In this document: positions 31,832-34,927 of the stretch, piece by piece
Numbering within the stretch: position 1 is the stretch's first letter
Layout of the letters: every line of letters starts with the position of its first letter
Origin: Shinisaurus crocodilurus
Lineage: Eukaryota > Chordata > Lepidosauria > Squamata > Shinisauridae
DNA length: 64,000 nucleotides
Assembly: GCA_021292165.1 (NCBI GenBank)
Contig: CM037876.1
Span: 36,973,075-37,037,074 of the forward strand
Direction: 5' to 3'
The notes under the pieces: model-generated
Database searches by the model: none
Told to the model about the DNA's origin: nothing
What the model saw: the letters and a program-made list of their open reading frames with translations, nothing else
Made by a program: the position numbers and the translations under genes

Positions 31832-33058
31832 AGTGGAAGACCGACAACCTGGTCTTCTGCGCGGGTTCAATACTAAGGGGGTAGCGAGTCCTGGGGGCGG
31901 GCCTTCTCCGAGGTCCCCCAGCGACTATCACCCTTAGTCCAGAACAAAGGGATAACTTATAGCCACAAAAGTATCTTTTATAAAACAAGTTTATTTACAA
32001 AATTACCTTCACCAACCCAGACACACGCCAGCAATACAGCTTATCAGTACGGTACAAAGTAGCAAGCAAGAGGTCTCAAGGACACCGTGATTTCAGGGCT
32101 CTCAGCTAGTTAGTTCAGCTCGGGCTCCAGCAGAGGCCCGGTCAACCGCATGCTGCTAGCTGGGTTCCCGGCGGAGGTCCGGTCTACCCAAGCGGCTAGC
32201 TGGGTTCCCGGCGGAGGTCCGGTCTACCCAAGCGGCTAGCTGGGTTCCTGGCGGAGGTCCGGTCTACCCAAGCGGCTAGCTGGGTTCCCGGCGGAGGTCC
32301 GGTCTACCCAAGCGGCTCGGGAGTGATTTCAGCTTGGTTTCCCGGGGGTCCGGTCAACCCAAGCGGCCAGTGATTTCAGCTTGGTTTCCCGGGGGTCCGG
32401 TCAACCCAAGCGGCCAGTGATTTCACCTTGGTTTCCCGGGGGTCCGGTCAACCCAAGCGGCCAGTGATTTCAGCTAGCTGGAGCACGCCGGGTGCTGCTA
32501 CCCGGGGTTGCCGATCCCTTCGTCCCTTACCCCAAGCATGGGGCAAGATTGCTGATCAGGTCCAACAACTCAGTTCCCTTGCGCAGGGTGTTTTATACCT
32601 TGGGTTTCAGGTAGCCCTTCCCTCTGCAATCAGGTGGGTGGCCAATCAGGTGGGTTGCCACCCTCCTCAGGTGGGTGGCCAATCAGGTGGGTTGCCACCC
32701 TCCTTAGGTGGGCGGCCAATCAGGTGGGTTACCACCTTCCCCCTGTGGGGTGGGGTCCCTTTGAAGCCACTTGCTTAATGGTCCCATCCTGTGGTGTTGA
32801 ATGGCCCTTTCTTATGGGTGCCGAAGTGTCTGCTCTGGCAAGGTATTCAAGTCTTATGTAGATGGGGCTGATATACGAGAGCATTGACGAACCTGGGGAT
32901 GCTTCCTGCCTTCCCCCCTGGGGTGATTCTATGCAGATGTTGTTTGTCCCCTTTGGTCTCTGTGGAGACTGGCTGTCTTCCCCCCCTCGGGTCTCCTTCC
33001 CCCCTCCTTGGTGAGTGTGTGCGTGTCAGAAAGGGGTTTTAGGTTGGCTTTCTCCACA
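31832..33058 (-). repeat. 3' LTR of the gypsy/KIF5B chimera
   Basis: The LTR is 1,227 bp. It starts TGTGGAGAAAGCC on the minus strand and ends TCTTCCACT next to the duplication AATAA; the terminal T replaces the usual A. An AATAAA near 31990 on the minus strand lies close to the 3' end. Three tandem arrays lie inside: four 40-bp units at 32155-32314 ('gctagctgggttcccggcgg'), three 47-bp units at about 32323-32463 ('gtgatttcagcttggtttcc'), and ~37-bp units at about 32630-32735 ('ggtgggtggccaatca'). Confidence 0.88.
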
Positions 33059-33074
33059 TCTCCCCCCCGGGGAA
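33059..33074 (-). other. Polypurine tract of the gypsy element
   Basis: The minus strand reads CCCCGGGGGGGAGA directly before TGTGGAG of the 3' LTR. This is the expected G-rich primer for plus-strand synthesis and confirms the LTR boundary. Confidence 0.8.
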
Positions 33075-33129
33075 AAGATGGCATTGGGGTCCCACACCCC
33101 AATTTCCCATCGACTTGCCCATCACCTGA

Positions 33130-33890
33130 GAAAGCCCGGGAGAGTGCATCAGCCAAGACATTGTCCTTACCCTTGATGTGCTCAATTTCGAAGTCAAAGT
33201 CTTGCAACGCCAGACTCCACCGTAGGAGTTTTTGGTTGTTGCCCTTGACTCTATCTAACCAGCACAGGGGGGAATGGTCAGTCTGCAGGCGGAACCGTCT
33301 CCCCCAGAGGTAGGGGCGCAACTTGGTGATGGCCCACACCACGGCCAGGCACTCCTTCTCAATGGTGGCAAGGCTACGTTCTCTGGGCAGGAGCTTCTTG
33401 CTCAGGTATGCAACGGGGCGCAGCCCTTCTCCCACTTTCTCCTGTAACAACACCGCCCCCATCCCGGCCTCAGAGGCATCCGTCTGTAGAACGAAGGGGG
33501 ATTCGAAGTCTGGGGCTTGCAGAATGGGAGCTGCCGTGAGGCAGGCTTTTAACCCGTCGAAAGCGGTCTGGCAAGCCGCGGTCCACTGGACCCTGTTCGG
33601 TTGGCGCTTCTTACAAAGATCCGTCAGAGGGGCTGCTAGCTGACTGAAGTGTGGCACAAACTTCCGATAGTACCCTGCAAGTCCCAGAAAAGCCTGCACC
33701 TGTTTTTTGGTTGCGGGTTGGGGCCATTTCTGAACCGACTCGATCTTAGCTTCCATGGGTTTGATGCTCCCCCCTCCGACGCGATGTCCAAGGTACTCAA
33801 CCTCCCCTAGCCCCACCTGGCACTTCTTTGCTTTCACCGTCAACCCAGCAGTCCCGGATCCAGCTGGAAGACCTGCCGGACATGCTGCAG
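33130..33890 (-). pseudogene. Ty3/gypsy pol fragment: end of RT and RNase H
   Basis: The open frame on the minus strand (stop at 32929) encodes the connection of a gypsy reverse transcriptase (KKCQVGLGEVEYLGHRVGGG), the thumb-type segment VQAFLGLAGYYRKFVPHFSQ, and an RNase H-like domain with FVLQTDASEAGMGAVLL, ATIEKECLAVVWAI, LQTDHSPLCWL and NVLADALSRAF. The fingers and palm with the YxDD site are absent. At the KIF5B side the sequence 'ctgcagcatgtccggcaggt' is still gypsy RT but out of frame, so a small frameshift lies near 33855. There is no integrase between RNase H and the polypurine tract. It is inactive. Confidence 0.9.
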
Positions 33891-34634
33891 ATGCTATGAC
33901 TTCGAGAGCTATGTTCATTCATGTTTGTAACTGCTACATGTCGATTAGATTTTCCTTCATCTATAGTATCCATAACTTCATCTGGACTACATACAAAACG
34001 TTCAGTGCAGCCCTTCACATAAGGTACTCTGTTTTTGTCCTCATGAACAGAAAGATTGGTCTTTGAGACATCCAAAAGGTCCCTTATTTTATCCAGATAA
34101 ATTTCAAAATACAACACCTTAATATGAAACTCCAAATTTTCATCCATGGAATAAATATAATTAAAAATATCTTGGACTATCCTTGGAATGATACCCATTC
34201 CATCTGGATCATGTAGTTTCCCCTCCATAGTGTGAGTCTTCCCAGATGACGTTTGTCCATAAGCAAATATCGTACCATTGTATCCCTCAAGTACATCTTT
34301 AACAATCTTTTTTGCACAATCATTATATACTTGCTCTTGTGATGTGTGCGACTGGAACACACGGTCAAATGCATAAGGCTTAGACGCGATGACTACGGTG
34401 TCCTCGGCCTGGAACTTGGCGATGTACTTGTCGCCTCGAGTCACCTCAGAATCGTTGAGGGGCCTGAACCGACACATCACTTTGATGTTGCACTTCCGCC
34501 GGGTCCGCCATCTTAGGCCAACGCCGCCGCCGCTGTCTCCTCGCGGGCGTTCAGGTCGGCCAAACCGCCGCATCACCAACCGCCCGCTCCCGCCTCCCTG
34601 TTACCTTTCCCCTGGTTGCGGGGGGATCTTGCGG
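33891..34634 (-). pseudogene. KIF5B: KIF5B partial retrocopy (5' UTR plus ~205 codons)
   Basis: The minus strand encodes the first ~205 residues of kinesin-1 heavy chain without introns: NIKVMCRFRPLNDSEV, the P-loop GQTSSGKTHTMEG, KIRDLLDVSKTNLSVHEDKN and the switch I motif NMNEHSSRSHS. KIF5B fits better than KIF5A or KIF5C from my memory of the family. The copy begins with GC-rich 5' UTR joined directly to LTR sequence at 34635. The normal ATG is at 34511-34509, but one extra base a few codons later breaks its frame. An upstream ATG at 34579 reads in frame with the motor. The copy stops abruptly at 33891 where gypsy sequence begins. Switch II, the microtubule-binding region, stalk and tail are missing, so no working kinesin is expected. 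Confidence 0.92.
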
Positions 34635-34927
34635 GCCACTTGCTTAATGGTCCCATCCTGTGGTGTTGAATGGCCCTTTCTTATGGGTGCCGAAGTGTCT
34701 GCTCTGGCAAGGTATTCAAGTCTTATGTAGATGGGGCTGATATACGAGAGCATTGACGAACCTGGGGATGCTTCCTGCCTTCCCCCCTGGGGTGATTCTA
34801 TGCAGATGTTGTTTGTCCCCTTTGGTCTCTGTGGAGACTGGCTGTCTTCCCCCCCTCGGGTCTCCTTCCCCCCTCCTTGGTGAGTGTGTGCGTGTCAGAA
34901 AGGGGTTTTAGGTTGGCTTTCTCCACA
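34635..34927 (-). repeat. Partial 5' LTR of the chimera
   Basis: These 293 bp are equal in length and, by eye, identical to 32766-33058. They correspond to the first part (U3) of the LTR on the minus strand. The rest of the LTR, the primer-binding site and gag are absent; KIF5B 5' UTR follows instead. The outer end has the canonical TG and adjoins the AATAA duplication. Confidence 0.9.

What the first reader, a model, noticed from the sequence alone, without database searches (positions are those of the whole stretch)
31832..34927. A spliced KIF5B mRNA fragment captured inside an integrated Ty3/gypsy element
Seen: KIF5B 5' UTR and ~205 codons with no introns, fused on one side to gypsy RT/RNase H and on the other to the first 293 bp of the LTR, all inside one perfect 5-bp duplication (AATAA). 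Known: LTR retrotransposons can reverse-transcribe cellular mRNA by template switching. Inference: minus-strand synthesis moved from gypsy RNA to KIF5B mRNA near 33890 and ran to the mRNA's 5' end. Plus-strand synthesis from the polypurine tract copied only 293 nt of U3 before joining the KIF5B 5' end, giving a partial 5' LTR and no primer-binding site. Both switches are readable in one locus.
Basis: partly seen in the sequence, partly recalled or inferred. Interest (0 to 1): 0.9.

Follow-up and report, generated by a model that had tools for sequence, protein, structure and literature searches.

The report
Kinesin mRNA copy trapped by retrotransposon
In this animal genome a virus-like jumping gene copied part of the cell's own kinesin (KIF5B) message into itself and was pasted with it into a chromosome; that kind of capture was known, but this copy is fresh enough to read both copying jumps almost to the base.

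Summary
On the minus strand the insertion reads: first 293 nt of a gypsy LTR; 5' UTR plus about 205 codons of KIF5B without introns; the end of gypsy RT with RNase H; PPT; a full 1,227-bp LTR; 5-bp duplication AATAA outside. The parent gene is in the same assembly: 8 exon pieces joined at 7 GT-AG introns, with 3 substitutions and 1 inserted base in 750 bp. The LTR copies agree at 293 of 293 bp. The element belongs to a high-copy, Gmr1-like Ty3/gypsy family with integrase upstream of RT, so none was lost after RNase H. Both joints lie on microhomology: 7 nt at KIF5B/gypsy, 5 nt at U3/KIF5B. This fits a minus-strand switch onto KIF5B mRNA, then joining of a U3-only plus strand to a cDNA end that had no primer-binding site; a second minus-strand switch remains possible. 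One other family copy has a 5' LTR cut in U3 and joined to the PBS, again at GTGGC, but such joints are rare (1 against 342 normal). That copying reached the mRNA cap is not shown. LTR-mediated mRNA capture is known; this is a clean new example.

The parts
31827..31831 (.). target-site duplication, left copy (AATAA)
   Evidence: sequence; sibling L054 also has a 5-bp duplication (CAAGC)
31832..33058 (-). full 3' LTR, 1,227 bp; first TATAA at LTR nt 462, AATAAA at nt 1064
   Evidence: the same LTR follows RNase H in normal copies
33059..33068 (-). polypurine tract GGGGGGGAGA directly before the 3' LTR
   Evidence: read from sequence; same tract before 3' LTRs of other copies
33059..33895 (-). 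end of gypsy RT plus RNase H
   Evidence: Pfam RNase H; own genome: 1,891 first-look candidates, 40 scored = the window itself and 39 copies at 99%; alignment with 19 copies
33889..33895 (-). joint 2: 7-nt microhomology AGCATCT shared by KIF5B exon 8 and gypsy RT
   Evidence: random joints: P(>=7) about 0.0005
33889..34639 (-). KIF5B mRNA-derived segment: 5' UTR and exons 1-8 (exon 8 in part), introns absent
34635..34639 (-). joint 1: 5-nt microhomology GTGGC shared by U3 (LTR nt 289-293) and the KIF5B 5' region
   Evidence: random joints: P(>=5) about 0.0055
34635..34927 (-). partial 5' LTR: first 293 nt; ends before the first TATAA, no PBS after it
   Evidence: normal copies have LTR end plus PBS at the left
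34928..34932 (.). target-site duplication, right copy (AATAA)
   Evidence: sequence

Best explanation
A Gmr1-like gypsy RNA was reverse-transcribed from its PBS in the normal way: minus strong-stop, first transfer, U3, PPT, RNase H and the end of RT (inferred from the complete 3' LTR). At AGCATCT the growing minus strand switched to spliced KIF5B mRNA and copied it towards its 5' end (shown: spliced sequence and microhomology; direction inferred). The minus strand then ended in KIF5B and not in the PBS, so PBS-guided second-strand transfer could not work. The PPT-primed plus strand, which starts at LTR nt 1, had copied only 293 nt of U3; its 3'-terminal GTGGC paired with the GCCAC of the KIF5B cDNA end and was extended, perhaps with host alternative end joining (inferred). 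Integrase then inserted the linear DNA with a 5-bp duplication. Without PBS and without an intact promoter upstream the copy is probably unable to move again (inferred); no second intronless KIF5B copy was found.
For: 8 exon pieces joined at 7 GT-AG introns. The match ends 36 nt into exon 8, where the parent exon goes on, so joint 2 is not a splice product. 7- and 5-nt microhomology, rare in random joints. The left piece begins at LTR nt 1 and stops before the first TATAA (nt 462), so it is not the 5' end of a normal transcript. LTR copies identical at 293 of 293 bp. TSD. Sibling L054: U3 cut near nt 429 and joined to the PBS at GGTGGCA, full 3' LTR, TSD CAAGC. One intronless KIF5B locus in the genome search (9 candidates, all scored). 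A review says that second-strand transfer of LTR elements needs host alternative end joining and uses PBS microhomology (PMC12786077, section 3.4 read; the primary study was not read).
Against: The sequence does not separate plus-strand joining from a second minus-strand switch. U3-GTGGC/PBS joints are rare: 1 exact match (L054) against 342 normal LTR/PBS joints, and the pattern sees only joints at GTGGC after two purines. L054 may be a later deletion: its partial U3 is 97.9% identical to its own 3' LTR. None of 8 further places found at the same U3 site is a foreign joint. Whether joint 1 is at the KIF5B mRNA 5' end is untested.
Confidence: 0.65

Rival explanations
1. Two minus-strand switches: after KIF5B the minus strand jumped at GTGGC into the 3' U3 of a gypsy RNA, copied to U3 nt 1 and the PPT, and a plus strand primed at that second PPT made the left end.
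For: Accounts equally for GTGGC and for the start at LTR nt 1. The review read on LTR-based retrocopies says that switching can in theory occur several times (PMC5408686, section 2.2).
Against: Needs a further U3-bearing RNA and loss of the minus-strand tail beyond the second PPT; the partial LTR is bordered directly by AATAA, with no PPT left.
Confidence: 0.2
2. The insertion first had a longer left part (complete LTR, PBS, perhaps gag), and a microhomology-mediated deletion later removed everything between U3 nt 293 and the KIF5B 5' region.
For: 5-nt microhomology also suits deletion by end joining; L054 can be read the same way.
Against: Needs an extra event in a young copy (0 differences in 293 LTR bp).
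Confidence: 0.12
3. Assembly artefact or cDNA contamination.
For: No raw reads were available.
Against: AATAA on both sides, position inside a 321-Mb contig, 3 substitutions and 1 insertion that the parent lacks, microhomology at both joints.
Confidence: 0.02
4. LINE-type processed pseudogene of KIF5B that landed in a gypsy element.
For: Intronless copy.
Against: No poly(A), no KIF5B 3' end, and both KIF5B edges fuse to gypsy sequence at microhomology, with different gypsy regions on the two sides.
Confidence: 0.01

Closest known systems
LTR-mediated retroposition of cellular mRNA by template switching (Tan et al. 2016, Genome Res; not held, known here from citation and from reviews PMC5408686 and PMC8232201)
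   Same: Intronless mRNA copy with LTR sequence on both sides inside one element, microsimilarity at the switch, integration as an LTR element
   Different: Here the PBS and most of the 5' LTR are missing and U3 is fused straight to the 5' part of the mRNA copy; whether the 2016 study has such cases I could not check
Gmr1-like Ty3/gypsy elements
   Same: SCAN-type gag, zinc knuckle, H2C2 and rve integrase upstream of RT-RNase H in normal copies
   Different: The window copy keeps only the end of RT, RNase H, PPT and LTR sequence
Errors of plus-strand strong-stop transfer and non-homologous recombination with cellular RNA in retroviral vectors and yeast Ty1 (recalled, from no call)
   Same: Short-homology joints; an incomplete strong-stop product joined at the wrong place
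   Different: A natural insertion found in an animal genome assembly, not an engineered assay

Membership tests
LTR-mediated retrocopy | intronless copy of a multi-exon gene present in the same genome | tested here: met
   8 exon pieces, 7 GT-AG introns absent
LTR-mediated retrocopy | LTR sequence on both sides and direct fusion to element sequence | tested here: met
LTR-mediated retrocopy | microhomology at the switches | tested here: met
   7 and 5 nt
LTR-mediated retrocopy | integrase-type short target duplication around the whole chimera | tested here: met
   AATAA on both sides
LTR-mediated retrocopy | complete LTR at both ends (usual outcome, not taken as defining) | tested here: not met
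   left LTR has 293 of 1,227 nt
Gmr1-like Ty3/gypsy | integrase upstream of reverse transcriptase | tested here: met
   one normal copy (L030): H2C2 and rve in the upstream ORF, integrase C-terminal and RT domains in the next; RNase H then LTR in 19 of 19 copies. Gmr1 order as in PMC8220671 (passages)
Gmr1-like Ty3/gypsy | SCAN-like capsid | tested here: met
   PF02023 in 2 of 2 upstream ORFs scanned, E 3.5e-12 and 2.8e-12; relation stated in PMC4592553 (passages)
Gmr1-like Ty3/gypsy | placement in an RT or integrase tree | not tested
   no tree was built
LINE-type processed pseudogene | poly(A) tail and target duplication around the mRNA copy | tested here: not met
   sequence at both KIF5B edges

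The most novel reading that the evidence does not exclude
The locus records a PBS-independent second-strand transfer: a plus strand that had copied only U3 was joined by microhomology (GTGGC) to a cDNA ending in cellular mRNA, i.e. a genomic trace of end-joining-type second-strand transfer in a Gmr1-like element, with L054 as a second case in which U3 joins the PBS at the same GTGGC core.
Probability: 0.35. Interest if true: 0.55.

Novelty: new member of a known kind. Interest (0 to 1): 0.42.

Why it matters
The parent gene, the element family and both joints are in one assembly at near-zero divergence, so the two switches can be placed to within 5-7 nt. It shows that a high-copy Gmr1-like family captured a cellular mRNA recently in this genome, and it is a test case for whether second-strand transfer can proceed without a primer-binding site.

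Tried and rejected
Loss of integrase from the chimera: rejected, since RNase H runs directly into PPT and 3' LTR in 19 of 19 compared copies (9 by alignment, 10 by the printed boundary) and integrase lies upstream. Chimeric splicing: rejected, joint 2 is inside exon 8. Genomic duplication: rejected by the absent introns. Daughter copies: none seen; KIF5B gives one intronless locus. Other joints at the same U3 site: the pattern for U3 ending at GTGGC and not followed by T gave 9 places; 1 is the chimera, and 8 of 8 others are ordinary LTR variants. 5' ends: of 40 scored (665 candidates) I fetched the 39 other than the query; 39 of 39 have the LTR end at the PBS (23 by script, 16 by eye, of which 15 lay in reverse orientation and 1 has a substitution). 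One of them, L083, has the same internal deletion in both LTRs, an inherited short LTR and not a transfer error. Viral contigs: 2 pattern matches, no relative. The direct parent copy was not found: the closest U3 and the closest RT-RNase H matches are different places, and the listed RT-RNase H relatives differ from the chimera's U3 by about 3-4%. The chimera has two private inserted bases 27 and 39 nt from 33889, absent in 19 of 19 copies, plus two private substitutions elsewhere; a pattern with both insertions and a neighbouring substitution occurs once in the genome, in the chimera. Searches for each insertion alone did not complete and were dropped, so their link to the switch is open. Literature: ten searches answered, seen as titles and starts of abstracts; no listed title describes this capture, but KIF5B was never a search term and Tan et al. 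2016 is not held. PMC12132167 (passages) names the alt-EJ study only in its reference list.

Full report
What is there. On the minus strand, between two copies of AATAA (31827-31831, 34928-34932), stand a 293-nt piece of an LTR, a KIF5B-derived stretch, the end of a gypsy pol with PPT, and a complete 1,227-bp LTR. The partial LTR equals the start of the complete one at 293 of 293 bp.

KIF5B. The best solved-structure match is kinesin-1 heavy chain over residues 6-206 (E 4.7e-133). The same genome carries the parent on C5. Eight exon pieces, C5:24618271-24639214, join at seven GT-AG introns and match the chimera over 750 bp with three substitutions (coding strand: one G>A, two C>T) and one inserted base near codon 6. 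More distant hits on C1 (80% and 76%) are presumably a KIF5 paralogue (not tested). No second intronless copy was found among 9 candidates, all scored. The source was therefore spliced mRNA. A 267-aa open frame still runs through it (33797-34600), but the KIF5B start codon is out of that frame; I take it for a pseudogene fragment (inference). I give no absolute age, because no rate was tested.

The element. RT-RNase H (33050-33890) gives 1,891 first-look candidates; the 40 scored are the window itself and 39 copies at 99%. Against 19 of these the chimera differs by 0.60-0.96% (copies among themselves 0.52% on average), with 2 private substitutions and 2 private insertions. In 19 of 19 copies RNase H runs into PPT and LTR, as here. 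In a normal copy an upstream ORF has SCAN, zinc knuckle, H2C2 and rve domains, and the next ORF has an integrase C-terminal domain and RT. Integrase before RT is the Gmr1 order (PMC8220671, passages), and SCAN resembles the Gmr1-like capsid (PMC4592553, passages). Normal copies have TGGTGGCAG or close variants directly after the 5' LTR; I recall, from no call, that this fits a tRNA-Leu 3' end. The chimera lacks this PBS.

The joints. At joint 2 normal gypsy copies read ..GCAGCATCTGCAGC (9 of 9 displayed), KIF5B reads ..CATAGCATCTTTCTC, and the chimera reads ..CATAGCATCTGCAGC: 7 shared nt. The KIF5B match ends 36 nt into exon 8, where the exon goes on, so splicing did not make the joint. At joint 1 the LTR reads ..AAGTGGCTTC, the KIF5B locus ..CTGGTGGCCCGC, the chimera ..AAGTGGCCCGC: 5 shared nt. 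Random joints between the same sequences give at least 5 nt in 0.55% and at least 7 nt in 0.05% of 200,000 draws each. The KIF5B locus reads TGGTGGC at joint 1, the same 7 nt that begin the PBS; given GTGGC, the two extra letters are weak evidence (about 1 in 16).

Mechanism. The complete 3' LTR requires normal priming and first transfer (established knowledge of LTR-element replication). The left piece begins at LTR nt 1, the first base after the PPT, and ends at nt 293, before the first TATAA at nt 462. It therefore comes from U3 made by PPT priming or copied from a 3' U3, and not from the 5' end of a normal transcript (inference). I favour microhomology joining of the plus strand to a cDNA that ended in KIF5B; a review says that second-strand transfer needs host alternative end joining (PMC12786077, section 3.4 read; the primary study was not read). 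A second minus-strand switch is a live rival; a review of LTR-based retrocopies says that several switches are possible in theory (PMC5408686, section 2.2 read). A later deletion is less likely in so young a copy.

Sibling. Of 40 scored U3 places (1,163 candidates) 30 loci were cut. Two are the chimera itself; of the other 28, 5 are 5' LTRs followed by the PBS (3 by script, 2 by eye), 3 follow a PPT, 19 have neither (solo LTR or unresolved), and 1, L054 (C1:187297135), has U3 cut near nt 429 and joined to the PBS at GGTGGCA. Its 3' LTR is complete and its flanks are CAAGC on both sides. In the whole genome exact patterns count 342 normal LTR/PBS joints and 1 U3-GTGGC/PBS joint, L054. Such joints are rare, and L054 shows possibility, not frequency.

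What is not shown. The KIF5B transcript start; the strand on which joint 1 formed; the direct parent copy; presence in other individuals. The statement that synthesis ran to the mRNA's 5' end remains an inference.

Novelty. Intronless copies carried by LTR elements and made by template switching are described (PMC5408686, passages and one section; PMC8232201, passages; Tan et al. 2016 not held). A survey of non-mammalian chordates lists 404 retrocopies for the lizard and finds that retrocopy number goes with LINE1 number, in an analysis that left the lizard out (PMC3136929, passages). I file this as a new member of a known kind with an unusual PBS-less left end.

Noticed in passing
L054, C1:187297135 onward: Family copy whose 5' LTR is cut in U3 and joined directly to the PBS at GGTGGCA, with full 3' LTR and TSD CAAGC.
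   Followed up: yes
L103 and L104, C5:9845500-9852250 (5' end sampled as L083): Family copy in which both LTRs carry the same internal deletion (about 184 bp left), apparently an inherited short LTR.
   Followed up: partly
window 33850 and 33862: Two private single-base insertions close to joint 2, absent from 19 of 19 compared copies; perhaps copying errors before the switch.
   Followed up: partly
C5:24634689-24634725: Second partial match (37 bp, 95%) to KIF5B exon 5, about 600 bp downstream of the exon; perhaps a duplicated or pseudo-exon.
   Followed up: no
window 11674-12153, minus: Open frame with ELO domain (PF01151, E 7.2e-45), probably an exon of a fatty-acid elongase gene.
   Followed up: no
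window 39709-42432, plus: 907-aa open frame with endonuclease and RT domains, probably a LINE ORF.
   Followed up: no
window 22891-24063, plus: 390-aa open frame with RT domain, probably a LINE fragment.
   Followed up: no
window 32133-32475 and 32630-32740: Minisatellites (periods 40, 47 and 37) inside the LTR; the LTR end position varies between copies.
   Followed up: no
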